From contig CAUYUJ010021169.1 of assembly GCA_963575745.1 (NCBI GenBank), positions 52,308 through 116,307 on the forward strand: a stretch of 64,000 nt of DNA. Reading direction: 5' to 3'. Source of the stretch: Prorocentrum cordatum. Its lineage: Eukaryota > Sar > Dinophyceae > Prorocentrales > Prorocentraceae. The position numbers and the translations under genes were made by a program. Each line of letters opens with the position of its first letter. Within the stretch, counting starts at the first letter, position 1. Positions 1 through 59,900 of this stretch are shown here, piece by piece. The notes beneath the pieces are model-generated. The model saw nothing but the letters and a program-made list of their open reading frames with translations. It was not told the origin of the DNA and did no database searches.

Positions 1-1466
1 GACGACGGCAACATCCCCACGCTCACCACGGGCTGCATGCTCTACAGCTACGCCCGGGAGCGGCTGCTGCTGGGCGAGGAGTGCCTGCTGCTGAACGGCT
101 TCCCCATAGACCACCTCGACCTGCAGAACCACAGCCAGGCAGAGATGATCTTCCTGGCCGGCAACACCATGTCGATACCTTAGTGGGCCCTGGAAACGAC
201 AGGGCCGTTTTTTTACCGGTTCCGTTTTGCCGTTTTTTTGCCGGTTCCGACGCCGTTTTTTCACCGGTTCCGTCGCCGTTTCTTGACCGGTTCCGGCTCC
301 GGTTCCAATCCTGGAGCCGTTTTTTTGCCGTTTCCGGTCGCCGTTTTTTTGCCGTTTCCATTTTCAAGGGACATTCGTTTAGAAACGGTGAAAAAACGTC
401 CCTGCCGTTTCCGGGGCCCACATAGGTCGATACCGCTGGTGGGCGCGGTGCTCTTCGCGGGGCTGGTGGCGCTGGACTGGGGCCCCGACCGGTCGGTCAC
501 GGTGGGTTGCCACGAGCTGCCCGCGCCGGTCTCCATCCGGGCCGACGCCAGGAAGCTGGAGGAAAAGAAGCACACAGGCACAATGAATCTTCGATTCCCC
601 AGAAAACATGGGAAACTATGGGAAGTGGGCGGGAAGACAGAGACCCAGAAGATATGGGAACATATGAGGCATATTTTGATGTGTGTGTGTATTTTTGTGT
701 GTGTGTGTGTGTGTGTCCTTGGGCCCCTTCAAGGAAGCTGGCGGAGGCGTCCTCCAGCTCCCTGGTCATGCGGTGCAGCCAGGCGCTCCTGGACGACGAC
801 AACGAGGGGGCCGTGGACCTCGCCGTCGAGGCCGTCCGCGAGGGCGAGGCCGCGGCCCAGGACCCCGAGCAGCAGCAGCCGTGGGCGCGGAGGGCCTCGG
901 TGCTCCTCGCGATCGCGCGCGACTTTGCCCTGGCGGAGGGCAAGAAGAAGGACAAGGGCCTCGGGAAGAGGAACGCAGGGGGAGCAGGCAAAAGGACACA
1001 GAGACCTCACAGCTCGGAGGCCCCCATTCGGACTTCTCGGGTCGGCGCCGGGGGCCCCCCCTTGCCCTGGCGCGCGGGGCGCGTCAGGGGCGGCGCGAGA
1101 GGCGCCGTCAGGGCCGGGGGCCCCAGCGCCGAGCCGGGAAGTCCGCGGGGGCCACCGGGTTTTTGCGTGTAGGTCGTTGTCTGTGCCCCCAGGAAGGACA
1201 AGGGCACGAGCACGTTCCTGACGCTCATCGCGGAGCACGACCCCGACGTGGGCAAGGCCGCGCCCCAGGCGGAGTCCGACGACGACGCGGCGATGGGGGA
1301 CGGAACGGGCTGGGAGGAGCGCATGGCGAAGGTGGAGGCCAAGAAGGCGGAGGCCCCCGAGCTGTTGCGGTGGCTCCGGGAGGGCATCAGCCTGCTGCAC
1401 GCCATGGACCGGGAGGAGGGCATCAGCCGCGCCGAGGGCCTTCGGGAGCGGCAAAAAGGGGGGTGA
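1..1466 (+). CDS. 3' part of a gene with a cytosine-5 DNA methyltransferase-like C-terminus
   Basis: Four exons are inferred: 1-170, 426-551, 734-946 and 1193-1466 (TGA). Joined they give one open frame of about 260 codons; the 5' end lies outside the window. The first exon and the start of the second read ..RERLLLGEECLLLNGFP.. and ..FLAGNTMSIPLVGAVL.., which resembles the target-recognition/motif IX-X end of C5 DNA methyltransferases (R..L..E.l.lqGFP, then GN.m..p.v). The catalytic PCQ and ENV motifs would lie upstream, so activity cannot be judged. The rest is acidic and charged (KLAEASSSSLVMRCSQALL, then Glu/Lys-rich) and unrecognised. All three introns fall in codon phase 2. Two use a GA donor. 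The family call rests on the short C-terminal motifs only. Confidence 0.55.
171..425 (+). mobile_element. Introner-like intron with TIRs and 9-bp target duplication
   Basis: This GT-AG intron lies between direct copies of gtcgatacc (171-179 and 426-434). Its ends form imperfect inverted repeats of about 24 bp: the left end after the duplication reads tagtgggccctggaaac and the reverse complement of the right end reads tatgtgggccccggaaac. The GT donor is the first two bases of the left duplication copy. The body holds degenerate tandem units built on gccgtttttttgccggttcc. Removing it restores the reading frame (..NTM/SIPLVG..). This is the architecture of an introner, a transposon that creates an intron on insertion. 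Confidence 0.85.
552..733 (+). other. GA-AG intron flanked by a direct repeat
   Basis: The frame of the upstream exon is restored by removing 552-733. The sequence gaagctgg is present at both ends (552-559 and 734-741), so the donor would be GA and the acceptor AG after ..cccttcaag. The intron contains a (GT)n tract near 681-715. No convincing terminal inverted repeat is seen, so this may be an old introner or an ordinary intron. Confidence 0.6.
947..1192 (+). mobile_element. GA-AG intron carrying a GC-rich foldback element, 13-bp direct repeat
   Basis: The 13-bp direct repeat gaaggacaagggc lies at 947-959 and 1193-1205. The acceptor is a good ctgtgcccccag. The intron body at about 1031-1142 folds back on itself (arms acttctcgggtcggcgcc and its near complement) around a ctggcgcgcggggcgcg core. 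This core is shared with three other elements in the window (38.5, 40.4 and 44.6 kb). Splicing restores GKKKDKGTSTFLTL. No GT or GC donor is possible within the repeat that also leaves an AG acceptor, so GA is required if the repeat marks the junctions. Confidence 0.7.
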
Positions 1467-5359: not shown

Positions 5360-7135
5360 ACACTGCTAGATTTTTCCCTCGCCCACGAGCTTGAGAAGGA
5401 AGCTGCAGGGAAAGGGGGCGACGGAGGCGACAACCGACGGAGACGACGACTCGAACAGCCAGGCCTCTCGCACGCGCCGACAGGGTCGGCGGATTTCACA
5501 AGAAGTTGAAGGACCCCATGCCCGAGGGGCAGGATGTCATCTTCAACGGTCAGGGCATGCTGCGCCCGCTCGACGTTCTTGATCACAAGAGTCGCGGGCG
5601 GGAGAAGGTTCGGGCGCCATCTTTCTCGCCCGTGGGCGGGGGGCATGTCGAGCTGGCCGATATGGAGAGCTCATTCTGTGATATCCGCGAGAGGGTCCAG
5701 CGCGAGTCCCTTCCGCCCATCGCGGCGGAGGATTTGCTAGATGCCTTGAAGAAGATCAAGGCGACGGCGGCCACGGGGGTGGACCGCTTGAGTTCACGTG
5801 ATTTACTGCGTCTTTCTGTGTGGGGGCCCTTCAGGATATGGCGACCTTGCGCGGAGTATCCGAGGCAACTCAGTCGTGGCCACACCAAGTCCCCCTCACG
5901 ATCGGCACGCTTCTGCCGAGACACATTTCAGAACATTGAATTATATAACTGTTGCCGCGCTTGTCTAGAGTGCGGCCGCAAGCGCGAGAGCCACATGTGA
6001 AGCAGTGGGCGTCCGAGTGCGAAGCTCATTGGGATGTGACCATCAAGAAGAATGCAGCAATCAGAGAGGTGTTTCTTCGGGCGAAAGATAGGAGATGGCG
6101 GCGAGGTTTCATCGCGGCAGCGGTCTACTCGACATAGGCCAGATCTACAACCTTACCGGGTGGCTGATGGTCGGCAGAGCTGCGATGCGGCTCGGTTTCC
6201 CTGCTGAAGTCGTAGGCCTGGAGCTGATGCAGTGCATGGCGGCGCGGTACTGGCGGCAGTCGGGTACACGCTCTCAGCCATGTGCGCCCTTGCGGTCAGT
6301 GGTGCAAGGCCTCCGCGGAGGCGCCAGGTTCGCCTTGTGCGCCATGCGCCACCACATGCAGAAGCTGACGACGGTACATGTGGACATGTCGCAGAGAATA
6401 TGGATCCGCGGCCTCGGCCAGTCAATCAAGAGTACCAGAGAGACGATGCGCAACAGACTTGCGATGTGCCTCGTCGACACATGTCGTTTGATGCAGCGGG
6501 GTGGGCTTCTTCAGTCACCCACGAGAGCCGTTGTGCGCGCGAAACTGGATGGCGCCAAGTGCATTGCAAAGCGGGTGCGAGCTCGCGGGTTTTCGGTGCG
6601 TGCGACACCACAGGCGCCATGCCTTGGAGCAGACTATTGGGGGGGATCTCGGCATTCACGCGCGCGTAGGTCTGCGCGGCGGGCCGAGCGCGTGGCCATG
6701 CACAAGTGCGTGATCCAATGTGATCGGGCGACTCGACGATGCGGCCTCGCATCGAGGTCGGAGCAGCAGGGAGCAAGAGCGGCAGGAGCCTGCGGGCACC
6801 AGCTGCAAGGTGTTTTTGGAGATGCCATGACACCGTGTCACAGAACAGTGGGAAATTCACTCGGACCTCGGATGGTATCTCAAGGCTGCAGGCAGAGACC
6901 CAGCCTGCAAGGTGCCGAGAGAATGTTTGCGATTGTGGTTGTCTTGTTGGGTCCGTCAGGCGAGTATTCGAGATGGCATGACACGTGCGTGGCCAGATTT
7001 TGCCCGAGAGTTTGCAGCAATTCCACAGGCCCAGCGTGCTCGACACATCCGATGGCCGCAAGGAGCAGTGACCAGTTACTTATGCCAGGCAGGGTGGCGA
7101 CCAGATTCACCGACCAGCTAGGCCACGCCCAGTAG
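5360..7135 (+). pseudogene. Decayed LINE reverse transcriptase (fingers, palm, thumb)
   Basis: The segment 5506-5810 contains ..LPPIAAEDLLDALKKIKA.. followed by TGVDRLSSRDLL, which matches the N-terminal RT region of dinoflagellate LINE-like elements (L.PI...L..AL.k.k..ta.G.D). After a frameshift, 6000-6135 reads ..EVFLRAKDRRW.. and 6130-6240 reads ..IYNLTGWLMVGRAAMRLGF, the region that normally holds the first catalytic Asp. At about 6390-6430 the expected WVDDL-like metal-binding motif appears as RIWIRGLGQSI, so both aspartates are lost. Later segments (6900-7130) in another frame still read like the RT C-terminal region. Several frameshifts make it non-functional. Confidence 0.65.
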
Positions 7136-8089
<954 letters not shown>

Positions 8090-8090
<1 letters not shown>

Positions 8091-8880
8091 GAGCGACCTG
8101 CGGTGGCAGATCGGCGCGCGCCTCAACGATCATCCGGAGAACCAGTGCACGATGCGCTTCGCCCGCTCGCATCTCGAGGCCGCGGCCGTGCTACAGGGCA
8201 GGGCGCCCAAGCTGTTATTGTCGGGCAATGCCATGGCTGACGCCTTCGCCGCGCGTAGAGCTGACGAGTCAAGGATGCCAGAAAACAATCGCACGAGGGT
8301 TCTCGCCGCAGAACACAAGGCCTTTCTTGTTCAGTTGAGGATTTCCAGAGCATGATTGAGGCCTTGGCCGCTGAACAGGCGCATGAGAAGAGTCTAGGTA
8401 GGAAAGCAGCCCGTCGTGCCCAGCCTAGACCACCCACCCCTTCTGTGTGTGCGTTCTTCTCGTCTCCGCATGTGATCCGTGACTCCACTGGCAGTAAGTG
8501 CAGTAGGTGCCAGGGTACAGCCACAAAAACTAAGCGTAAGCACTGGCTTACCTCCTCGTGCTTTGAGCTAATTAATGTGGACAGTGTTCTGTTTGAAACT
8601 CCCCCCAGGCGGCGGGCTCATATCGCAGGGGGTTTTCCGGGTTCAAGCCATCACTTGCGACATCACGCGGGACTGGTGGTTCTGTCTCGCGTGCGGGTTC
8701 TACGCAGCTCAGCAGCTCAAAGAATTAGCCGAGCCGTTTGTTGGTAATGTAGACGGTAATCAGACTGATTACCTCGCTCCGATGTTCAAGGGTCTCTGGC
8801 CTAAAGCCTTCAGCAAAGCTGAGCTAGCCAAGAAGCAGAAATCGAGCATTCAAGTTTTTGTTCCCCGACTTGGTCGCCAC
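8090..8880 (+). pseudogene. LINE RNase H C-terminus and Cys/His finger region (decayed)
   Basis: The segment 8152-8355 reads MRFARSHLEAAAVLQGRA.. then LLLSGNAMADAFAARRA. This fits the last RNase H motif of LINEs (SH...., then GN..AD.lA..A). The next segment contains H.....CSRCQG..... and, at 8640-8780, ..WWFCLACGFYAAQQLKELA.. followed by a G.WP motif, typical of the Cys-rich tail of these elements. Frame changes occur near 8355 and 8600. The orientation and order (RT, RNase H, fingers) match one element spanning about 3.4-8.9 kb. Confidence 0.55.
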
Positions 8881-8974: not shown

Positions 8975-10136
8975 GCCCTTTCTGGGAAACCTGGCACTCT
9001 CTTGGCGGTTCCCGAGGCCTGCGAAAGTTTGTGGAAAAGGGCCTGCTGCAGCTGAAGGTGGACCAGAAGGCCGAGCGCCTGCGCCGCCTGGGCACGCCGG
9101 AGGTGCTGCACTACCTGTGGAAGGACCTCCTCATCCGCGAGGCGAAGCTTAAGTCGGGCACGTCCCTCTACAGGAGGACCATTCAAACATAGTCGGAGGA
9201 CGATATGTTACGCATTGTTTGGGGTCTTACGTGCGTCTTAAAGGTATTTTTATGGTTCGTCCAAAATCCGCCTGTAGGAGGACACGCCCGACCTAAGGCG
9301 AAGCCCTTTTTCTGCCGGGTGCAGCTGGATTCCCTGAAGCAGGACCTGAGGCAGCCCAAAGCCGGCTCGGACGCGGAGTGGCTCGACAGGGCGGCGCAAC
9401 TGGCCAACGCGGACATGACCTCGCAGCGCATGGAGCTCCTGGAGGCCGTCAGGCAGGTGCAGCCGCCGCCCGCGCCGCGGCTCTGCAGGCTGCTGAGGAT
9501 GTGGAAGGCAGACTGCACGATGATGGACAAGGAGATCAAGCTGGTCCTGGAGACCCTGAAATCGTTGCTGTCGGCCTGGGAGCGGCCGAAAGCGAGGCAC
9601 CAGGTCTGGTGCGGCCTCGACGGCGCCGCGGAGGTGGGGCGCCTGGCCCGGGAGCTGGCCCGGGCCTGCCAGACCAACAAGAAGCCCGCGTCTGGGAACG
9701 CGCTGTCGAGGCTTGCGGAGGAGCGTGTTTCTATATCGCTTGGGGCATAATGGGCATTATAGCCCCCTACCCCCCCCCCCCCTATAGCGTACCGCCCCTC
9801 CCCCCCCGTTGCGCTCCACGCACTGCCGCCGTGCGCACGGCGGGGGCGGAACGTTACATTATACCCCCCCCTCCTGGCCCCCCCGCACCCCCCGTACTGC
9901 CCATGATCGCCGAAAATAAAGAAACGCGCTCGAGGAGGCCGAGAAGATGGCGGAGGAGGAGGCGGGGCCCGCGGCCAAGCAGCCCCGCGCCGCGGCGCAG
10001 GAGCCCGGCGCGGCGCTGGCCTTCATGGAGAAGAAGGTGGCGGCTGAGGAGCGGCTCGCGGCCTGCATCGGCAGCGAGTCCATGAAGCTGTCGGAGTGGA
10101 TGGGCCTCTTTCCCACCACCGCCACCATAAGTTGGA

Positions 10137-10168
<32 letters not shown>

Positions 10169-10981
10169 GAGGAGGAGGAGGAGGAGGAGGAGGAGGAGGA
10201 GGAGGAGGACCCCCTCCCCCTCCAACTTCTGGTAGTGGTGGTGGCGGAAAACGGGCCCCTCAGGAGTGGAGCGTGAAGATGGGGGCGCTCATGAAGGAGC
10301 TCACCGGCCTCCTCGCGCCGCTTGGCCTGGACCCTCAGGGCGGGCTGCTGCTGCTCGACGAGGTGGGCAGGCTCGACCTGGCCAGGCGGGGGTGCGAGCT
10401 GATCCGCGAGGGGATAGACCGCCATGCCGTGAAGCAGGGGGAGGACCTCGTGCTGCAGCTGGTGGAGCGGGAGCTGCGCATCGCCGGGCTGGAGAAGGCT
10501 CGGCGACTGCAGCGGGTGTGATTACGCCGGGGTTGGGTTTGCGATCTGCGCCGGTGGGTCCCGGGGGTCACCACGTCGCGCCAAAGGTCTGATGAGCCCC
10601 CCACGGGGGTGCGCGGCAGGGGCCCTTGCCCAGGTCCTCGCCCGCCCCCCCCCAGGCGCGGGTTGCAGACCGCACCCTGTGCGAACCACACCCGTCGGGG
10701 TCGCCGAGAGGTGCTCGAGATCCCGGGGAACGCCTCCCTGCTCTCGAGGGTGGACGGCCACCCGGAGGAGGACAGGGCCCGCCTGTTGGCCGGCCTGCAG
10801 GCGGCGGGCGCCTCCGAGGAGCACGCCAGCATGACCGTGGAGGCGGCGCTGCGGGCCCACGTCATGGTGAGCAGGCTCTACCCGGAGGGGATCCAGATGC
10901 CCGAGGGGTGGCAGGCCATGGGCCTCCCAAGCGCCAGTGCGATCGGGGGGGCACGCGGCACCACGCAGCTGCGGGATGAGA
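8975..10981 (+). CDS. Unidentified gene with four introner-like introns
   Basis: Inferred exons are about 8975/9016-9141, 9298-9720, 9935-10093, 10264-10515 and 10711-10981. The joined frame is open throughout and every junction is in codon phase 0. The protein is mostly helical and charged: ..KVDQKAERLRRLGTPEVLHYL.., a Lys/Arg/Leu-rich exon 2 with two Trp-containing helices, an acidic exon 3 (..EAEKMAEEEAGPAAK..), and exons 4-5 rich in Leu, Glu and Arg. No domain was recognised. The 5' boundary is uncertain because a TCC tract precedes it. The last exon ends before a GTGAGC donor at 10982, so the gene probably continues beyond a long repeat-filled intron. Codon use is strongly GC-biased at third positions, unlike the surrounding repeats, which supports real coding. 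Confidence 0.65.
9142..9297 (+). mobile_element. Introner, GTCGGGC-type TIR family, copy 1 (GC-AG intron)
   Basis: A 156-bp intron flanked by aggcgaagc (9140-9148 and 9296-9304). The ends are inverted repeats: the left end reads aagtcgggcacgtccctcta and the reverse complement of the right end reads taggtcgggcgtgtcctcct. The donor is GC (gag/gcgaag) and the acceptor AG (cctaag/gcgaag). Excision restores LIREAKPFFCRVQLDSL. Related copies are at 41266-41431 and 45972-46136. Confidence 0.88.
9721..9934 (+). mobile_element. Introner, second TIR family (GA-AG intron)
   Basis: This 214-bp intron is bounded by gaggag (9721 region and 9935 region). Its ends are related inverted repeats: left gcgtgtttctatatcgcttg, reverse complement of right gcgcgtttctttattttcgg, with atcatgggca/ataatgggca further in. 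The interior is C-rich. Excision joins LAE to EAEKMAEEE in phase 0. The donor must be GA if the repeat marks the junction. Confidence 0.75.
10094..10263 (+). mobile_element. Introner, (GGA)n-core TIR family, copy 1 (GA-AG intron)
   Basis: A 170-bp intron with direct repeat ggagtgga (10093-10100 and 10263-10270). Terminal inverted repeats of about 40 bp surround a (GGA)n core: left gggcctctttcccaccaccg then ccaccataagttggaggggg; the reverse complement of the right reads gggcccgttttccgccacca and accagaagttggaggggg. Excision gives LSEWSVKMGALM. A second copy is at 45713-45893. Confidence 0.85.
10516..10710 (+). mobile_element. Introner-like GT-AG intron with TIRs
   Basis: A 195-bp intron between LQR and VLEIPGN. 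The left end gggtgtgattacgccggggt resembles the reverse complement of the right interior, gggtgtggttcgcacagggt, so inverted repeats are present though offset by about 15 bp from the acceptor. Only GTG is shared at the two junctions, so no clear target duplication is visible. It is a fourth sequence type, different from the other three introns of this gene. Confidence 0.6.
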
Positions 10982-11096: not shown

Positions 11097-11780
11097 AGCA
11101 GCAGCAGCAGCAACAACAGCGGCAACAGCCAGAATTGTTGCAAGAGTTTTCGGTCTTGCCTGCTTGCGTGCCATGCGGCACGTATATCCCAAATCCTCGG
11201 TACCCGCACACTTCGTCTTCGATCGTGCCCCCCTGGGGGTAGATTTTCCTTACCTGCGGCGTGTAATTGGCGCAGCCCCTGAAGCACGGGAAGAGAGGAC
11301 GCATGGAGCACGGGATTTGCAGGAGGGGGGCGAGGAACAGAAAACGTGTGGCAGAACCATACGGGCTGATCGGGCGGGTCGACCCTAACGGGCGGGTCGG
11401 AAAGGCGCGCCTAAGTGGCCGTGTGGAGAAGGCGTGTTGCTGAACCGTGAACACCGCGTGAATCGCGAAAAGAGCCCGAGCGATAGCGCGATTTCCAAGT
11501 AAGTCTTGGGAAAGGCCACAGCGAGAGCGTGATGCCTGAGTGTCGAGGGCGCGGCGTCTGAATCAATTGCCAGGAAGTCCCACGCGAGAGCGCTTTTCCT
11601 GCATAATGGGTGAGGAAGTCCCGCGCGAGAGCGCAATTGTGAAATCAATTGTGAGGAGTGTCCGGCGGGAGCCGTTGCTGTTGCAGTTCGGGGGCCATGC
11701 GCTCAGTTTGGTGACACCAAGTTTCCCTTGATAGAAAACGGGGTGCGAGCCCCGAGGGGGGCCCTTCAATTGAAAAATCA
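11097..11780 (+). repeat. Family R repeat, copy A
   Basis: Begins with a CAG/CAA-rich tract, then conserved blocks: cccaaatcctcggtacccgc, cttcgtcttcgatcgtgccc, gcagcccctgaagcacggg, gctgatcgggcgggtcg, then four or five degenerate subunits of the type gaggaagtcccgcgcgagagcgc, and a tail gtttggtgacaccaagtttc. No ORF is conserved between copies. Copies A, B and C are head-to-tail. Confidence 0.8.
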
Positions 11781-11921: not shown

Positions 11922-12670
11922 GCAACGGCAACAAACAACACCACCAATAGCAACACCAGAAATACAACCAACACTATCACTATTAACAACAACACCAACA
12001 ACAGCAGCATCAGCAACAGCAACAGCAGTTCAAGACTGTTTGCAACTATTTGCCCGCGTGCCATTCCATACGTACATCCCAAACACTCGGTCCCCGCCCT
12101 CTTCGTCTTCGATCGTGCCCCCTTGGGGTCATCTCTTCCCTGTCTGCCACGTGCACTTAGAGCAGCCCCTAAAACAGGGGAAGAGAGGGCGGATGGAAGG
12201 GGGAGGGAGAAACATGGAACACGAGAGAGAGAGAGAGAAAGAGAGTAGCAGGTGGGGGGCTGTGAGCAGACAACACGTGGCAGAACCAGACGGGCTGATC
12301 GGGCGGGTAGACCCTAACAGGCGGGTCGGGAAGGCAGGCCGAGCAAGCGGGTTGTTGAAGCGTGAGTCCTGCATGATTCGCGAGGAAGACTCAAGCGATA
12401 GCGCGATTCCCAAGTAAATCGTGAGAAAGGCCAAAGCGAGAGCGTGATTCCTGAGTGTCGAGGGCGTGCGAGGAAATCCCACGCGAGAGCGTTGAATGAC
12501 GTGTGCGGAAGTTCCGCGCGAGAGCGCGATTTGGGAATACATTGTGAGGAAGGAAGTATCCAGAGGGAGCCGCTGTTTTTGTAAGCTGGGGGCCAACAAC
12601 CCAGTTTGGTGACCCCAGGTTTTCCCGTATGAAGCACAGGGCGCGAGCACCAGGAGGAGCGTTGGTACAG
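11845..12670 (+). repeat. Family R repeat, copy B
   Basis: Same order of blocks as copy A: a long CAA/CAG tract (11845-12035), caagactgtttgc, the cttcgtcttcgatcgtgccc block, gggcgggtagaccctaacag, four gaggaa..tcccacgcgagagcg subunits, and gtttggtgaccccaggtttt. Start-to-start spacing with copy A is about 750 bp. Confidence 0.8.
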
Positions 12671-37916: not shown

Positions 37917-40100
37917 GTGGGCGTGTCCAGCACGGGGCTGCAGTTCTTCTACCAGCAGGGCGACCCCAAGAAGGAGACCCAGTGGCGCATCCCGCTCTAC
38001 CCCGACGACAAGCTCGACGAGGCTTGGAGGGGGCCAGGGCGTCTGAACTGGGCCCCGAGAAAATATGTCAAGAAGGGGGATATGCCAAATCCGCTCAAAA
38101 GTGTTCCCCGCACCCCTCCCGGGGTCCATGTGGTGTATAGTGTTTCACCCCGGATCCGCCTCTACTGGTCCCTGAACCCGAACCCCGAACACGGCCCCCT
38201 GAGGCCGAACAAGGCAAAACACCTCCTCTGAACCCAGAGCCTCGAGCCTTGCCCCCCTGGCTGCTGGCGGGAACCAGTGCTGGGCCACCCCGTAACCACC
38301 AGCCGGCTCCAAGACGAGGCGCTGGGCCCGGAGGGCCGCCCGGACCTCCAGAAGCAGGCGGGCGCCCCCGCGGCCGCGGCCACCGCGGCCGAGCCCCCCG
38401 CAGCCGCCGACGAGGCGGCGCCCGCGGACCCGAAGAAGGCACCCAGCGTGGCCAGCCGGCTGCCGCCTCGCCCCGCGGTGCCGTTGGGCGGGCGCGGCTC
38501 AGGTCGAAGGGTCTGAAGCAACAAAAACTGCAAGCACATCAATTGCTGGAGCTCCGCGCACGGATGTCTCGGATATCGGCGCTGGGCCCCCCCCGTCTGG
38601 CGGCGCCTCCGGCGCCGCCCCTGCTCCGCGCGCCACAGGGAAGGGGGTCCGGCGCAGATCCAAGAAGTTCTCGCGGACCTCAGACAGCTTATATGTTTCC
38701 CCCCTCTTCTGTCAGGGCCCGCGGCGTCGCAGGCCGCCAAGGGCGACCCGCTTCCCAAGGCGCTCGAGGAGACGTCGGTGGCCGAGATGCCCGCCGGCAG
38801 CCTGCTCGACGCGCTGGGGCCGCGCGCGCCCACGACGCCGCCGAAGAAGAAGAAGAGGCCCCAGGAGCAGCCCGCGCTCGCCCCAGCCTCGTCGTTCCGG
38901 GCGGCGGGCGGCCTGCCCGGCGCCCCGCAGTGGCCCAAGGCCTTCGTCTTCGGGCCCCCGGGGCTGTCGCAGCCGTCGCTGGCGCCGGCCGCGGTGGCCA
39001 AGTCGACCTCCCGTCACTTCTTCCTGTCCCTGGCCCGGATGAGGAACCAGCCGCGGCCGCCGGTGCTGGCGCCCGCCGCGCCGGCGCGCGTCCTCGCGGT
39101 GGACGCCGCCGCTCCGCCGGCGCCGCCTCGGGCGCCGACGAGCCCGAAGGCGCGGCGCGGCGAGGGCCCGCCCCGAGCGCCCAGTGAGGACGGGGCCCCC
39201 GCGCCAGCGAGCCCGAAGGGCCCCGAGGAGCCCCCGCAGGGGCAGCCCCGCCCGGCCGAGGGCGCCGACCCGATGGGCGACTTCTACGCGACGCGCCAGG
39301 TGGGGCCGGCGGCCGGCGGCGCGGGGCCCGCCCCCGCGAGCACGGCCCAGCCCAAGCCGGTGCAGCTGCCCACGCCGCAGCCCAAGCCGGCACTGGGCAA
39401 GGAGCCCGGCGCGCGGGCCACGCCGCAGCCGCCGAAGCTGCCGCCGCCGGCGTGGCTGATTCAGAAGGCCAACGGGCCCGGCCCCGCAGCGGCAGCGGAG
39501 GCGCCCGGCGGCCCGCCGCCGCCGCCCGCGCAGGCTGCCGCCACCGCGGCGGGGCCGCTGGGCCCCGCGGGGCAGTTCGGCGGCGACCAGGGCCCGGCGG
39601 GTCAGCTGGCCCCTCCGCCTCGCCCTGCTGGCCCCCCGCAGGCCCAGGGGGAGAAGCCGGGGTGGGCCAAGCGGCCCATCATGCTGCCGAGCGGCCCCCT
39701 CATGCCGGTCAGCTTCGTCCTGCCGCACCCGCACAGCCAGCAGCTGCCGCGGCAGATGCCGCAGATCACCATACCCTTCCACAGCCCGCCCTACGCGGCC
39801 CGACCCAAGCTGCCTGGCCCGCAGGAGCCAGCCCGACCCCCGTCCGACGCCATCCTCATGAAGAACCCGGGCCCGGCCCCCAAGACGCCCCCGAGGCAGC
39901 CGCCAAAGGCGCAGGCTGCCGCTGCGCAGCCGCAGGCGGCCGCTGCGCAGCCGCCGAAGGCGCAGGCGGTCCTTCCCGCGCCTCCCGCGCCACCCTCGGG
40001 CGCTGAGGTGGCCGTGCCGATGCCAGTCTCCCGCCCGTGCCCCAGGCCACCCGCGCCGCCTGCAAGGGAGAGGAGCCGCAGCCGGAGCCCTCGAAAGTGA
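37917..40100 (+). CDS. Pro/Ala-rich protein gene with C-terminal SR dipeptides
   Basis: Exons 37917-38021, 38319-38502 and 38716-40100 (TGA). The 5' end lies upstream and is not found. Exon 1 reads VGVSSTGLQFFYQQGDPKKE then TQWRIPLYPDDKLDE, a globular-looking piece. Exons 2-3 are rich in Pro, Ala and Gly, with FVFGPPGLSQPSLAPAAVAK, a DPMGDFYATRQVG segment, repeated PPKAQA/QPQAAAAQ motifs and a tail PPARERSRSRSPRK. The SR tail suggests a nuclear RNA-processing role, but there is no RRM or other domain to confirm it. The first intron falls in phase 0 and the second in phase 1. Very high GC at third positions. Confidence 0.6.
38022..38318 (+). other. GC-AG intron with 8-bp direct repeat
   Basis: gacgaggc occurs at 38016-38023 and 38314-38321. 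Splicing gives KLDEALGPEG. The ends show only a weak inverted match (ttggag both ways), so its introner nature is uncertain. Confidence 0.65.
38503..38715 (+). mobile_element. GT-AG intron carrying a GC-rich foldback element
   Basis: Donor TCAG/GTCGAAG, acceptor TTCTGTCAG/GG. The foldback at about 38545-38690 has gtctcggatatcggcgctgg on one side and gcgcagatccaagaag on the other. It is related to the elements at 1031, 40333 and 44573. Confidence 0.7.
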
Positions 40101-40332: not shown

Positions 40333-40526
40333 GGGAAACAAGAAGTGACATAAACATAAAAACTCGGAGGTCCGCGCGGATTTCTCGGATCGGCGCTGGA
40401 CCCCCCTCCCTGGCGCGCGGAGCGCGCCAGGGGCGGCGCCGGAGGCGCCGCCGGGGGGCCCCAGCGCCGATCCGAGAAATCCGCGCGGACCTCCGAGTTT
40501 TTATGTTTATGCCACTTCTTGTTCCG
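40333..40526. mobile_element. Best-preserved GC-rich foldback element, arms about 75 bp
   Basis: Left arm from 40333 (aaacaagaagtgacataaac then ataaaaactcggaggtccg) and right arm ending at 40526 are nearly exact complements. The centre is a further palindrome ctggcgcgcggagcgcgccag. It lies about 230 bp 3' of the SR-tailed gene. Confidence 0.9.
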
Positions 40527-41170: not shown

Positions 41171-41265
41171 GTTCAAGCCGTGCTTTTCCCTCGATCTCGG
41201 CCCTCTGGTGCGGTGTTCGGGCTCGGGGGCCAGGAACACTTGGAGCTGGGGCGAAACACTACCCT

Positions 41266-41431
41266 TAAGTCGGGCCTGTCCCACTACAGGAGGAATTTTC
41301 AAACATAGGAAAGAAAACTAGTCTGGGGACGATGTTTTGACGATTTGGGGAAATTTGTGGGAGGTATTTTTTGGAGTATTTTACATTTGTCGGTCAAAAT
41401 CTATTTGTAATTAGGGGGACACGCCCGACGT
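41266..41431. mobile_element. GTCGGGC-type TIR element, copy 2, with 11-bp direct repeat
   Basis: Ends taagtcgggcctgtcccact and, reverse-complemented, tacgtcgggcgtgtccccct. Direct repeats aacactaccct at 41255-41265 and 41432-41442. The interior is AT-rich and unlike copy 1. No exon is recognised around it, so it behaves here as a plain transposon. Confidence 0.88.
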
Positions 41432-41717
41432 AACACTACCCTCGGGGAGGCGGTCGGGACCTCGGGGGCCGCAGATCGAGCCAAAAGCACAGCGGCGGAG
41501 GTCAGGGGAGCGGGTCCCGAGGGAGACGCGGCCCGCGGTGTTCCCTCGCTCGGGGCGTTCTGCGGGCCCCGTGGACTGTCGGAGAACGACGCCGCCCGAA
41601 GATTTGGTCACGGCGGGAGGGCCCCAAGAGCCAGAGCCTGTTTCCCTGGGGACCCCGTTGTCATGGCGCCAACATCGCCGAGCGGATTTCGCTCGGACAG
41701 CGACGGGATGGGCCCGA

Positions 41718-44572: not shown

Positions 44573-44665
44573 CTTCCGCCGCCCCTGGCGCGCTCCGCGC
44601 GCCAGGGAGTGTCGTCCAGCACAGATCCAAGAAGTCCGCGCGGAGCGCCAACAGTTCATGATTAT
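44573..44665. mobile_element. Partial GC-rich foldback element
   Basis: ccctggcgcgctccgcgcgccaggg core, then gcacagatccaagaagtccg, as in the intronic element at 38.5 kb. The left flank is missing or diverged. The following ttctttcttcttccatag resembles a 3' splice site. Confidence 0.65.
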
Positions 44666-45712
44666 GCCGCTCTTTCTTCTTCCATAGGAGTCCCTGCTCC
44701 ATCCCCGGCACTGCCTCAGCGGCAAGACTGCCTCCGTGGGCAATGTCCGACCAGTCCCTGCAGCGGCCTCAAACTAGCGTGTCGGGAGTGCGGGTTAGCC
44801 TTTTGTTGGCCTTCTGTTAGCCTTTAGCCTGGGCGGTCAGAGCTGATGGCTCAGGGTGTTGGCCCCTTCCTGCCCCCCGGCCTGGGAGAGTGAGCTCCCC
44901 GCAGGGTAAGGCGCTCCTGCGCACTCGAACGACAGCAAAACAGTGCGTGCACGCTAGCGCCTGCGTGTCCAGGTGTCTTGCGCCTTCGCGGCTGGCGTCA
45001 GGTGGTCTAAGCCCGAGGTTGTGCGCCCTAGCAAGTGGGCTCCCCAGATTGATGCAGGCCGCCGAGGACATCACAGCCCGAGAGCGAATGGTCGGCCCCG
45101 GTGCTTCTATGCATGGGGGCGGCGCATATTCTTTATACAGGTGCTGTGCAGTGGGGCGGCGCGTACTCTGTACGCACACACATGCACGCCGCTGCACGTG
45201 GAGGACATGCGGCAGGTTCGCGCCGCGTCGACGCGGCGACCATGCCCCGTCGCGGGCGCTCGAGGTTGAATGCCGCCCGTGGGCCGGAGTCGGCTGGCGT
45301 GGAAGGGCGCCAGGGATCGGATGGCCGTGATCGTTCACGGTTGAGCGCTTCAGGCGCGGTGTCATGAGCCAACGCCGAGGTCGCCACGGCACGAGTCTGC
45401 CGTGCGTGCGCACACCGCCGCACACGGCGTCGTTTGAGGATCGGGGGCAACGATCGGCGGAGGTGGGCTCCGGGGAAGCGCATCGGCCCCCCCAATCGCA
45501 CTTCTCACCGCCGATGTAGGGGGCCCGACAGAGCCGGCCCCAGGAGCGCGCGGTCTCGTGATCGAGGGCCTGCCGCCGATCTCTCGGCGATGCATCGCCG
45601 CCTGCGGCTCGGCGATGCCCCCCCCCGGAGCCAGGCCCCCCCGATGCCGGGGCACCCTCGGGGGCACGAAGGCAATCGCGCCTCGCGCGCCTCGGTGTGG
45701 GCCAGCGCTGAC
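44666..45712. other. GC-rich stretch, no gene recognised; dispersed repeat copy 2 at 45215-45400
   Basis: A short segment after the acceptor-like site (44689-44775, ..SLLHPRHCLSGKTASVG..) may be an exon. The rest has no supported coding frame. Confidence 0.35.
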
Positions 45713-45893
45713 GGGCCCGTTTTCCACCATCACCACCACCATGAGTTGGAGGGGGAGGGGGTCCTCGGTCCTCCTCCTCCTCCTCCTCCTCCTCCTCCTC
45801 CTCCTCGTCCTCCTTCTCCTCCTCCTCCTCCTCGTCCGCCACCTCCTTCCCCCCTTCCAACTTCTGGTGGTGGTGGTGGAAAGCTGGCTCAGC
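45713..45893. mobile_element. (GGA)n-core TIR element, copy 2
   Basis: Left cgggcccgttttccacca then ccaccatgagttggaggggg. Right ends ccttccaacttctggtggtg then gtggtggaaagctgg. The core is a (TCC)n array, opposite in sense to copy 1. No clear target duplication is seen. Confidence 0.75.
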
Positions 45894-45971: not shown

Positions 45972-46136
45972 TGAGTCGGGCCTGTCCCTCTACAGGAGGA
46001 AAATTCAGAAATAGTCAAAACATCGTACGGAGACTCTTTTTAGCATATTGTTATTATTTTGGCATATGTTTCCAGTGTTTCTCATATTTCGCCCAACGTT
46101 CGCCTGCAGGGGGACACGCCCGACCTGGGCGGGGCG
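45972..46136. mobile_element. GTCGGGC-type TIR element, copy 3
   Basis: Starts gagtcgggcctgtccctcta and ends cctgcagggggacacgcccg. The interior is AT-rich. The flanks show no clean direct repeat. Confidence 0.8.
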
Positions 46137-55300: not shown

Positions 55301-56935
55301 AAGGCCCCTTTCTATCGAGAGATTGCATAGGGGGGGGCCTCTCGACGCGCGGCCCGAAGTGTCTTCGGCGGCTGCCAACCGCGACAGGATGGAGTCGGCT
55401 GCCTGGCGGAAGATATGAGGAATGTCTCGGCTTCGTGTCCTGGGATTTAATCCTGTTCACACGTCAGGAGAAAGGCTTCCTGAACTTCTTGGAGAGACTC
55501 GAAATTTCGATTTGGTTTTTCTGGCGGGCACCCAGCAGATGGAGCACAATGATTTTGCCCCTCCAGTCCAGAGTATGAGGATTGCAGGGAAACAGGTTTT
55601 GACAGCGCCATATTCCCCGTCGCCGTTCAGCAATCACAGTTGTGGCTGCCTCATGGCTTTCGACCCGCAAGTCCAGCCGCGCCATGTGATTCGGACATGG
55701 CCGTCACCACAGACGGCGAGGGGGCGAGGGCTAGCTGCACGGGTGAAGCACGGCTCAGTGGACATGTGCGGCATAGTGTGCTACTTCCCCCCTCGCCCTC
55801 GGAATCGAGCAGCGCACGGAGGGTACTTCCGCACTGTCGCCACGCTCGTTATGTGGATGTCTTCCATCATGTGCGTGCTCCCAGCAAGATGTACGCCAGT
55901 GGTCTTCGCAGACATCAATTACGGCATGGGGGAGGCTAAAGTAGAGAGTACATGAACATCAGTGCACACGCCAGTCATCGGAGTTTCGAACAGAGAATTA
56001 TGTGTGAATGGAGCTGGACATCGTATGCGCATGTGGATGGAAACGCAGGACATGGTTGCAGCAAACACGTTTACAGAGAAGATCGAGCCCACCTTTTTCG
56101 GCATATACGGCCATTCGAGAATTGAGTACCTGTTCGTACCGAGGGCGATGCATGAACAAGTCGTGACGGGGAGAGCACACTTTCGCCTCGGGGCGAGACT
56201 ACAAGCCATAGGAGGAGTGTCCCCACGAGATCACGTTCCAATAATGATGGTGATGAAGTATGAGGAGCACGGAGCGCCATTGAATGTCAATATGCAAGAT
56301 TCTTGGGATACGGATAAGATGATGGCTTCGGTGCGGACAGGGGCGGGTAGAGAGCAGTTTCTACAGAAAGTTCGAGAGGGGTGTGACGGGCTCAATCTGG
56401 TATGGTACAGAGACCACGCGTCGCCAGACCGGATCTTCGAGACTTTGGAGGAGGTACTACGAGCAGCGGGGCAGGACGTATTTTCACTACAATCAGAGGT
56501 TCGCCCAGGCTACAGCGCAGCGTGTGCGCAACGACGACTTCTACTCCAGCAACAAGTGGAACTTCGGGCTGAGAAATATCGGGCCTCCCCAGAGGAGGCA
56601 GCCAGGATCGACCAGGAGCTGAAGGAGATCACCCACCAGCTGTTTCTGGAACGAAGACGTGCTGCCCGACAGCTGAGAGGTCAACTCACAGCGGAGGCAT
56701 TGCACAACTGGCATAGGGGGCGCATGGCAGAGGGGATGAGACTGGCTCGACGAGCGGCCCGTACTCGGCACGGGCTCAAACGACGAGACGGACGACTTGT
56801 CCGCTGTGCGCCGCCTAGCAAGCAGGAGTGGCTCCCAGTATGGTCTCAGAGCGGACCTGAGGGCGGCATGGAGGTGGTCGAGACTTCCTGGGATCTACGG
56901 CGAGACGCTCGGGAGGAGACTGGTATTTATTATGG
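55301..56935 (+). pseudogene. LINE 5' part (endonuclease domain), tandem copy 1
   Basis: The first block (about 55423-56330) resembles an AP-type endonuclease (exonuclease-endonuclease-phosphatase fold) of non-LTR elements: ..RVLGFNPVHTSGERLPELL.., VVFADINYGMG in place of the D.N. motif, and YGHSRIEYLFV in place of the S.IDY motif. There is a TGA at about 55953 and a frame shift near 55450-55700. It ends abruptly at 56935, where the start of copy 2 follows. The C-terminal part (56330-56930) is Arg/Glu-rich and helical. Confidence 0.65.
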
Positions 56936-59900
56936 AAGGCCCCTTTCTATCGAGAGATTGCAGAGGGGGGGGGGGGGCCTCTCGACGCGCGGCCCGAAGT
57001 GTCTTCAGCGGCTGCCAGCCGCGACAGGATGGAGTCGGCTGCCTGGCGGAAGATATGAGGAATGTCTCGGCTTCGTGTCCTGGGATTTAATCCTCTTCAC
57101 ACGTCGGGAGAAAGGCTCCCTGAACTTCTTGGAGAGACTCGAAATTTCGATTTGGTTCTTCTGGCGGGCACCCAGCAGGTGGAGCACAATGATCTTGCCC
57201 CTCCAGTCCAGAGTATGAGGTTTGCAGGGAGACAGGTTTTGACAGCGCCATATTCCCCGTCGCCGTCACAGTTGCGGCTGCCTCATGGCTTTCGGCCGGC
57301 AAGTCCATCCGCGCCATGCGATTCGGACATGGCCGTCACCGCCGACGGCGAGGGGGCGAGGGCTAGCTGCACGGGTGAAGTACGGCTCAGTGGACATGTG
57401 CGGCATAGTGTGCCACTTCCCCCCTCGCCATCGGAATCGAGCAGCGCGCGGAGGGTGCTTCCGCACTGTCGCCACGCTCGTTATGCGGATGTATTTCAGC
57501 ATGTGCGCGCTCCCAGCGAGATGTGCGCCAGTGGTCTTCGCAGACATCGATGACGGCATGGGGGAGGCTAAAGTAGAGAGTACATGGACATCAGTGCACG
57601 CGCCAGTCATCGGAGTTTCGAACAGAGAATTATGTGTGAATGGAGCTGGACATCGTATGCGCATGTTGATGGAAACGCGGGATATGGTTGCAGTAAACAC
57701 GTTTACAGAGATGGTCGAGCCCACCTTTTTCATCATATACGGCCATTCGAGAATTGATTACCTGTTCCTACCGAGGGCGATGCATGAACAAGTCGTGACG
57801 GGGAGAGCACACTTTCGCCTCGGGGCGAGACTACAAGCCATGGGAGGAGTGTCCCCACGAGATTACGTTCCAATAGTGATGATGATGAAGGAAGCACGGG
57901 GCGCCACTGAATGTCAATATGCAAGATTCTTGGGATACGGATAAGATGATGGCTTCGGTACGGACAGGGGCGGGTAGAGAGCAGTTTCTACAGACAGTTC
58001 GAGGGCGGTGTGACGGGCTCAATCTGGCATGGTACAGAGACCACGCGTCGCCAGACCAGATCTTCGAGACTTTGGAGGAGGTACTGCGAGCAGCGGGGCA
58101 GGACGTATTTTCACTACAATCAGAGGTTCGCCCAGGCTACAGCGCAGCGTGTGCGCAACGACGACTTCTACTCCAACAGCGAGTGGAACTTCGGGCTGAG
58201 AAATCGGGCCCCCCCGGATGAGGCAGCCAGGATCGACCAGGAGCTGAAGGAGATCACCCACCAGCTGTTTCTGGAACGAAGACGTGCTGCCCGACAGCTG
58301 AGAGGTCAACTCACAGCGGAGGCATTGCACAACTGGCATAGGAGGCGCATGGCGGAGGGGATGAGACTGGCTCGACGGGCGGCCCGTACTCGGCACGGGC
58401 CCACACGACGAGACGGACGACTTGTCCGCTGTGCGCCGCCTAGCAAGCAGGAGTGGCTCTCAGTATGGTCTCAGAGCGGACCTGAGGGCGGCGTGGAGGT
58501 GGTCGAGACTTCCTGGGATCTATGGCCAGACGCTCGGGAGGATACTGGTATTTATTATGGCGAAGTCGACTCGGAGGAGATCATGGAGCTAGCCAAAGCG
58601 GATGTGAATACGATGAGACGGTATGCGAGGAGAGCCCCGAAGAGGAAGATGGCCCCAGCAGGCGCGGCTCCCTTGGAGGTCTGGCATCAGTGTATGTGGC
58701 TGAACTACAGACAGCGCACACGAGCTGGAGTGGGATCGGCTACGAAGCTCATCTCTCCTCAAGGATTCTGGTTCCTGCTCGCGCACGGACTGGCCAAGAT
58801 GAGAGAACACGAGCAGGTGCCGCTGTACTGGAACAAGTCCAGGGGCGCAAACATCCCGAAGATGCTGGAGGCGGGGCCGAAGGGCGTCCGCGTGGTCCAC
58901 GTGCTGTCGTTCGCGGGCAAAGCCTTCTTCTCGAACAAGCTGAGGGTGGTGCCCACAGTTGCCGATCACGGATTTGTGCGTCATCGCCGTCGGGAGAATG
59001 TGTTCGTGACGCTGGCATCAGGATGGAGGGCCCGACGGCTGGGATATACTTATTGCAACACTTTCAAGGACACGGGCAACGCGTTCGCGAGCCCGGATTG
59101 GGAAGAATTCGACACAACTGTCTCCTTGGCGGCCGCTGAGCATGATCGTGAGTTGTGCAAGCAGCGCTACCGCAAGGCCTTGGTTGAGCTGGACGGGCAG
59201 GAAGGATCTTTTTTTTCGTTCGCCCACGGTGTGGTGGACCCATGGGAGACCCTTTTACAGTGCAGGGCTTCCTGGGAACGTTCGCCTGGGCAGTTTTGAG
59301 ATGGAGCTGCACGCTCCGCCGTACTGATATGCATTCAAAAGCGCTGGTATCGACGTGGCAAAACCTGGCTGCGGACCTCAGCTTGGCAAAATACGCTGGT
59401 GACTTGCAGAAAATGGTAATTGCAGATCCAGGCAGCACACTACGCGCTTTCCTAGATAAGTTTCGACGGGTCGATGATGCACTAGACGAATTTTCTAGCT
59501 CCATATGGGTATGGGCAGAATATAGGTAAACAGGAGGTGCTCTTTCACTTTGCACATCATGATTATCAGGCACGTCGCGCTCTACGACTGGGGCGAGATA
59601 AAATTCGGGGCAACGTATCAGATTGTGTTCGGTACCTGGGGCCGCGCCTGGTGGCGCGTGAAGCCGCGCATCACGAAGTAACGAGATGTTGTGTTATGGC
59701 AAAAAAAAAAATACCGTCTTGGGGGAGTATGGTCGCTAGCATTATCTTACAAATGGCGAAGAACATTACTCCAGGGCCAGGTCTACAACACTTTGATCAG
59801 TGGGCTGGAGCCCTTTGTACTACTGGACACAGACTATAAGCGGCCTGGACCGCTGCCTCGCCCCCCTTTGCCGTATAGCCATGAGAGGGGCAACGACTGA

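What the first reader, a model, noticed from the sequence alone, without database searches (positions are those of the whole stretch)
9142..10710. One gene with four introns, each a different inverted-repeat element
The four introns at 9142, 9721, 10094 and 10516 have four unrelated terminal inverted repeats, three have direct repeats at the junctions, and all interrupt the frame in phase 0. This looks like repeated, independent intron gain in a single gene by several introner families rather than ancestral introns.
Basis: partly seen in the sequence, partly recalled or inferred. Interest (0 to 1): 0.92.

Follow-up and report, generated by a model that had tools for sequence, protein, structure and literature searches.

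The report
Four transposon-born introns in one gene
In this alga-like (dinoflagellate) genome, one gene appears to be interrupted by four introns, each of which is a single small jumping-DNA element from a different family plus the short stretch of host DNA it duplicated on arrival; this is a clear example of a known way of making new introns.

Summary
Four introns (9142-9297, 9721-9934, 10094-10263 and, corrected, 10498-10710) interrupt one strongly coding frame (GC3 0.95). Their inverted repeats are unrelated to one another. In the window's own 4.13-Gb genome each intron has 39 further scored places (832-1,934 first-look candidates). Other copies give each family its own duplication length: 8 (A), 3 (B), 5 (C) and 3 bp (D). 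Each intron is exactly one element plus one duplication, which leaves no room for an older intron; all four, not three, have a duplication. Intron 4's element starts at 10499, so a GC donor at 10498 fits better than GT at 10516. Phase 0 is uninformative (35 of 47 AG|G sites in this CDS). Coding-like flanks were found in 5 of 95 sampled copies, so these look like genome-wide MITEs, not gene-targeted introners. Copies elsewhere interrupt a dynein intermediate chain, an ion channel and a pepsin-like gene. Families B and D prefer AG-containing targets, so the duplication supplies the acceptor. Splicing is inferred: no cDNA was held, and no homolog or paralog was found. The phenomenon is known in dinoflagellates.

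The parts
9043..9141 (+). exon a (3' part; 5' end not determined)
   Evidence: open frame, coding score
9142..9297 (+). intron 1, GC-AG, 156 nt = element A 148 + TSD 8
9149..9296 (+). MITE family A copy, TIR TTAAGTCGGGC
9141..9148 (+). TSD copy 1 of intron 1 (GGCGAAGC)
9297..9304 (+). TSD copy 2 of intron 1 (GGCGAAGC)
9298..9720 (+). exon b, 141 codons
9721..9934 (+). intron 2, GA-AG, 214 nt = element B 211 + TSD 3
9721..9931 (+). MITE family B copy, TIR GAGCGYGTTTCT
9718..9720 (+). TSD copy 1 of intron 2 (GAG)
9932..9934 (+). TSD copy 2 of intron 2 (GAG), supplies the 3' splice site AG
9935..10093 (+). exon c, 53 codons
10094..10263 (+). intron 3, GA-AG, 170 nt = element C 165 + TSD 5
10098..10262 (+). 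MITE family C copy, TIR (T)GATGGGCCYGTTTTCC, with an internal GGA repeat
10093..10097 (+). TSD copy 1 of intron 3 (GGAGT)
10263..10267 (+). TSD copy 2 of intron 3 (GGAGT)
10264..10497 (+). exon d, 78 codons (ends at 10497 under the corrected intron 4)
10498..10710 (+). intron 4 (corrected), GC-AG, 213 nt = element D 210 + TSD 3
10499..10708 (+). MITE family D copy, TIR CTCGGCGAC
10496..10498 (+). TSD copy 1 of intron 4 (AGG)
10709..10711 (+). TSD copy 2 of intron 4 (AGG), supplies AG|G
10711..10980 (+). exon e (3' end not determined)
41265..41433 (+). second family A copy in the window, flanked by ACACTACCCT repeats
45974..46126 (+). third, more degenerate family A copy, no TSD seen by eye
45710..45893 (-). 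second family C copy in the window, opposite strand to intron 3

Best explanation
Four unrelated non-autonomous DNA transposons (MITE-like families A-D) landed separately in exons of one gene and became introns at once, because the duplicated target together with the element's ends formed GN...AG|G splice sites that this dinoflagellate's spliceosome accepts. Shown: family membership, TIRs, family-specific duplication lengths, intron = element + one duplication, and one coding frame after excision. Splice-site recruitment read from the sequence: in A and C the donor (GC, GA) lies in the duplication, and the acceptor is the element's last A plus the duplication's first G. In B the donor GA is the element's own start and the acceptor AG is in the duplication. 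In D the donor is the duplication's last G plus the element's first C, and the acceptor AG is in the duplication. Inferred: the splicing itself, that each insertion was spliced from the start, cut-and-paste mobilisation by transposases encoded elsewhere, and the order and age of the insertions.
For: Genome copies of each intron: 40 places scored per family (own place included), all matching; first-look candidates A 1182, B 1934, C 832, D 859. Duplication length measured on other copies: A 8 bp (exact in 8 of 27, at most 2 mismatches in 23 of 27); B 3 bp (exact in 16 of 34, none at 4 bp; one duplicate pair, so 15 of 33); C 5 bp (exact in 10 of 23); D 3 bp (exact in 13 of 24). Intron length = element + duplication in 4 of 4, and the spliced sequence equals the empty site in 4 of 4 (the second follows from the first once the boundaries are set). 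Exact-excision joints pass the coding test in 4 of 4, against 58 of 2000 random joins. Copies elsewhere, read across the joint: D in a dynein intermediate chain (PDB 7k58_D E 1e-27, gap-free over residues 14-80 with the joint at 29/30); C in an Ion_trans gene (E 2e-16; no gap at the joint in the best PDB match); D in a pepsin-like gene (PF00026 E 3.4e-4, just above its cut-off; the best PDB match has a one-residue gap at the joint). Donors GC, GA, GA, GC suit the species the assembly resembles (GC 51.4%, GA 23.8%, GT 24.7%, acceptor AGG 79.7%; PMC10666404 passages).
Against: No transcript was available, so splicing is inferred. The gene has no homolog at E <= 1 among the 8000 candidates scored, no Pfam family at E <= 1 and no paralog found in its genome, so no empty site was seen for this gene. 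One D copy in a GH3 gene (L133) has the duplication CCT in the sense direction, where the clean AG|G route cannot work, so some exonic copies may be spliced otherwise or sit in broken genes. Of 108 sampled copies with both ends found (27 A, 34 B, 23 C, 24 D) 61 show no exact duplication of the family length.
Confidence: 0.9

Rival explanations
1. Ancestral introns into which MITEs later inserted.
For: MITEs are abundant in this genome and could land in introns.
Against: No intron sequence is left over: in 4 of 4 introns the whole intron is one element plus one duplication of the length found in other copies of that family.
Confidence: 0.04
2. Unspliced transposon insertions: the gene is dead and the frame across the joints is a relic.
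For: No homolog found, no cDNA; full-length family copies match intron 1 at only 72-77%, so the insertions may be old.
Against: Exons keep GC3 0.95 and no stops over 393 codons after excision; a dead gene with old insertions would be expected to lose its frame (inference). Copies of C and D sit in recognisable conserved genes in the same way.
Confidence: 0.07
3. Intron 4 uses the reader's GT donor at 10516, turning six mostly element-derived codons into exon.
For: GT-AG is possible and keeps the frame.
Against: The element starts at 10499; the GC donor restores the empty site exactly, GC donors are the commonest class in the resembling species, and the extra codons (GCT CGG CGA CTG CAG CGG; 4 of 6 end in G or C) fit the gene's GC3 less well.
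Confidence: 0.12

Closest known systems
Introners of dinoflagellates (Roy et al. 2023 Curr Biol, known here only through the review PMC11453091, passages)
   Same: TE-derived introns, many families per genome; [quoted passage not shown]
   Different: Here four families within one gene, each with its own duplication and splice-site recruitment; sampled copies are not concentrated in coding flanks
Introner elements of Prorocentrum cordatum (Dougan et al. 2023, PMC10666404, passages)
   Same: Genome statistics are close (4.15 Gb, GC 59.7%, 22,724 scaffolds, against 4.13 Gb and 21,875 contigs here); introns there are described as enriched in inverted-repeat introners
   Different: That work found them by a pattern search (IR 8-20 nt, DR 3-5 nt within 30 bases of intron ends); families and target sites are not given in the passages seen; supplements not read
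TSD/TIR introners surveyed by Gozashti et al. 2022 (PMC9860276, passages)
   Same: Elements with 3-9 bp duplications and/or inverted repeats that can recruit one or both splice sites from the duplication
   Different: Introners there were enriched in genes in 161 of 175 genomes; no such enrichment was detected in the copies sampled here
Introners of Amoebophrya (Farhat et al. 2021, PMC7789003, passages)
   Same: Introns with inverted and direct repeats in a dinoflagellate lineage
   Different: There defined among non-canonical introns, of which a majority show an AG-A(N) pattern; here GC/GA-AG

Membership tests
Introner (TE family whose insertions become introns) | Sequence-similar copies at many places in the genome | tested here: met
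   40 scored places for each of four introns, the intron itself included
Introner (TE family whose insertions become introns) | Same family as an intron in more than one gene | tested here: inconclusive
   By homology across the joint, met for C (Ion_trans gene) and D (dynein IC, pepsin-like); not seen for A or B among 26 and 33 sampled copies (one weak A flank hit without homology)
Introner (TE family whose insertions become introns) | Intron boundaries coincide with element plus duplication | tested here: met
   4 of 4, with intron 4 at the corrected boundary
Introner (TE family whose insertions become introns) | Enriched in genes | tested here: inconclusive
   Not detected: coding-like flanks in 5 of 95 sampled copies (A 1/26, B 0/33, C 1/11, D 3/25); random joins 58 of 2000. 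The test is insensitive: it misses short exons, did not flag the dynein copy, and cannot see copies inside larger introns. Not a required feature in all descriptions.
Introner (TE family whose insertions become introns) | Spliced out of transcripts | not testable with these tools
   no cDNA held
Introner (TE family whose insertions become introns) | Absent from orthologues at the same site | tested here: inconclusive
   no homolog and no paralog found for this gene, and no genome of a related species held
MITE (short non-autonomous TIR transposon) | Short, TIRs, fixed-length TSD, many copies | tested here: met
   148-211 nt; TIRs; TSDs; places and candidates
MITE (short non-autonomous TIR transposon) | Autonomous partner with a transposase | not tested
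   superfamily not assigned; 8-bp duplications recall hAT-like elements and 3-bp ones CACTA or Harbinger, from memory only

The most novel reading that the evidence does not exclude
Introns here are a by-product of ordinary, genome-wide MITEs rather than of specialised gene-seeking introners: families B and D duplicate trinucleotides containing AG (B: NAG/CTN in 13 of 15 exact duplications; D: AGG/CCT in 8 of 13), and A and C end in A next to the duplication, so an exonic landing in a suitable target brings its own acceptor and a tolerated GC/GA/GT donor. Lax donors would then make coding exons nearly safe targets for unrelated transposases, and would explain why one gene can collect four families.
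Probability: 0.35. Interest if true: 0.72.

Novelty: new member of a known kind. Interest (0 to 1): 0.55.

Why it matters
How new introns arise is an old question. This locus gives four independent, base-exact candidates in one gene, with three duplication lengths and three ways of building splice sites, in a genome where the parent families are still readable. It makes a rule testable: element end + target duplication + lax donor = intron.

Tried and rejected
Homology of the gene: no hit at E <= 1 among the 8000 candidates scored, no Pfam family at E <= 1, own-genome protein search returned only its own five exon pieces. Rfam at gathering thresholds: none; tRNA: none. A window-wide scan for TIR plus direct repeat >=7 gave 10 places, against 1, 4, 1, 2, 0, 0, 0, 0 in eight shuffled controls; it finds intron 1 but not introns 2-4, and by design misses 3- and 5-bp duplications. 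A first reading of intron 4 with a GT donor and a GGTG repeat was dropped (note, search). First guesses of the duplication length for C (8, then 5-7 bp) and B (6 bp) were replaced by 5 and 3 bp. Enrichment of D over A-C in coding flanks was not significant (p 0.11). RNA folding only restates the inverted repeats. Genome searches for gene 1's introns did not complete. One search failed by a script error and was rerun, mended; one search stopped part-way and was replaced. TE superfamily not assigned. Rows dropped before counts: L061, L026 and L038 (duplicates or overlaps of L060, L025, L037) in the family counts; L122 (duplicate of L121) and in the 15-of-33 figure. In one search the chance figure for A used 22 of 27; the listing gives 23. 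Sampling: A 27, B 36, C 27 and D 32 of the 39 other listed places each; C's 39 counted as contigs.

Full report
What was checked. The window lies in a 4.128-Gb assembly of 21,875 contigs, at C20320:52308-116307. Its size and the window's roughly 60% GC are close to the published Prorocentrum cordatum CCMP1329 assembly (4.15 Gb, 22,724 scaffolds, GC 59.7%; PMC10666404, passages).

The gene. On the + strand, exons 9043-9141, 9298-9720, 9935-10093, 10264-10497 and 10711-10980 join into one open frame of 393 codons with GC 0.72, 0.45 and 0.95 at the three codon positions. A coding scan of the window marks these exon blocks (it also runs on into intron 3, whose GGA repeat mimics coding sequence). 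The 5' and 3' ends of the gene were not found. The protein has no relative at E <= 1 among 8000 scored candidates, no Pfam family at E <= 1 and no paralog found in its own genome.

The introns. The inverted repeats are real. Against 5000 shuffles each, introns 1-4 were matched or exceeded 0, 0, 0 and 2 times; against 5000 random places in the window, 31, 23, 16 and 52 times, a set that includes simple repeats and other elements. Each intron's two ends match each other (scores 15-19) and no other intron's ends (4-7, around the null mean of 5.8).

Families. Introns 1 and 3 already have other copies in the window: A at 41265-41433 with 10-bp direct repeats, and more decayed at 45974-46126; C at 45710-45893 on the other strand. 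Introns 2 and 4 showed no other copy there. In the genome all four are dispersed repeats. For each, 40 places were scored, the query's own among them, and all matched (A 72-77% identity for full-length copies, with two short pieces at 96-98%; B 80-86%; C 77-96% in the best piece per contig; D 76-81%); first-look candidates numbered 1182, 1934, 832 and 859. Only the best candidates are scored, so copy numbers are not measured.

Duplication lengths from the other copies. A: 8 bp, exact in 8 of 27 copies and within two mismatches in 23 of 27. B: 3 bp, exact in 16 of 34 copies with both ends found (36 given), and never 4; one pair is a duplicate locus, so 15 of 33. C: 5 bp, exact in 10 of 23 (27 given). 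D: 3 bp, exact in 13 of 24 (32 given). With these lengths, each intron of the gene equals one element plus one duplication: 148+8, 211+3, 165+5, 210+3. Nothing of an older intron is left, so the insertion was the intron gain. The samples are the copies most similar to each intron, not random ones.

Correction of intron 4. Before the widened genome search was answered I noted that the 60-nt arms reach back to 10499, with AGG on both sides (note). The search then returned 39 other places, of which 29 start at query position 10-14 (10499-10503), 7 further out and 3 further in; other copies share the start NTCGGCGAC and 3-bp duplications.

How the splice sites arise (read from the sequence). A: duplication GGCGAAGC, donor GC inside it, acceptor = the element's last A + the duplication's first G. 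C: the same with GGAGT, donor GA. B: duplication GAG; the element starts GAGCG and so carries a GA donor, and the second GAG gives AG|. D: duplication AGG; its last G plus the element's C is the donor GC, and its AG is the acceptor. Among exact duplications, B's are NAG or CTN in 13 of 15 and D's are AGG or CCT in 8 of 13, against 12% and 4% of trinucleotides in the window. So two families choose targets that already contain the acceptor, or its complement.

Outside support for excision. Copies elsewhere sit in recognisable genes and read through when element plus one duplication are left out. D in a dynein intermediate chain: joint KNTR^FPEY, aligned without gap to dynein intermediate chain 2 (7k58_D, E 1e-27). 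C in a voltage-gated-type channel gene (Ion_trans E 2e-16), found on two contigs with identical flanks. D in a pepsin-like gene just before DTGTS (PF00026 E 3.4e-4); there the best PDB match lacks one residue exactly at the joint, so this case is weaker. D also lies in an open frame without a Pfam hit (L130), PDZ-like by eye only. Against a simple rule: one D copy lies in a GH3 gene (Glyco_hydro_3_C E 3e-20) with CCT in the sense direction, where no AG stands at the joint. Two D copies (L129, L132) are phase 2, so phase 0 is not a family trait; in the gene itself 35 of 47 AG|G sites are phase 0, so four of four has a chance near 0.3.

Are they introners? By anatomy yes, in this gene. By genome behaviour they look like ordinary MITEs: coding-like flanks in 5 of 95 copies (A 1/26, B 0/33, C 1/11, D 3/25), with 58 of 2000 random joins passing the same test. 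Two of the five (L003 of A, L110 of D) were not checked for homology. The test is insensitive: it missed the dynein copy, and both ends were not found in 16 of 27 C copies. Papers describe introners as usually gene-enriched (161 of 175 genomes, PMC9860276, passages) and report many introner families in dinoflagellates (review PMC11453091, passages; the Curr Biol 2023 paper itself was not looked up and was seen only as cited). Thus the kind is known. The four families may or may not be described: the listings of my searches show no title or abstract start naming them, but supplements and that paper were not read.

Neighbour. Gene 1 (1-1466) carries three introns with direct repeats of 9, 10 and 13 nt at the junctions (171-425, 552-733, 947-1192); the first also has strong inverted repeats (score 28; the other two 9 and 8, i.e. 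none), and the third contains a repeat found three more times in the window, once in part. Its first joint lies in a stretch aligned without gap to 7r76_A (deposited name Rad8, E 0.006; that this is DNMT5 is recalled).

Noticed in passing
window 1-1466 +: A second gene with three repeat-flanked introns (171-425 GT-AG, 552-733 GA-AG, 947-1192 GA-AG; direct repeats 9, 10 and 13 nt); the first joint is in a DNMT5-like stretch (identity recalled).
   Followed up: partly
window about 1013-1164, 38548-38698, 40347-40502, 44577-44671: A further palindromic GC-rich repeat family (called F here), once inside intron 3 of gene 1 and once in what looks like an intron of the 38.3-40.1 kb gene (the latter by eye).
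   Followed up: partly
L133 (C2891): Family D element inside a GH3 C-terminal domain with duplication CCT in the sense direction, so a clean AG|G junction is not available.
   Followed up: partly
L025 and L026: The same ion-channel stretch with the same family C intron and identical near flanks on two contigs: a duplicated gene or two haplotypes.
   Followed up: no
L086 and L088: Family B copies abut sequence resembling family A ends, suggesting nested or adjacent insertions (by eye).
   Followed up: no
window 11140-11760 and 12040-12650 (also 28-33 kb): Diverged copies of a longer repeat rich in GAGAGCGCGATT-like motifs, seen by eye and partly as tandem-repeat hits.
   Followed up: no
window 55419-57218 and 57059-59299: Two neighbouring similar ORFs beginning GMSRLRVLGFNP, perhaps tandem copies of a retroelement endonuclease ORF; no Pfam family of note for 55956-57218 or 57950-59299.
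   Followed up: no
window 5395-8750 +: ORFs upstream of the gene that look like a decayed LINE-type element by eye; no Pfam match at E <= 1 for 5395-6000 or 6092-7135.
   Followed up: no
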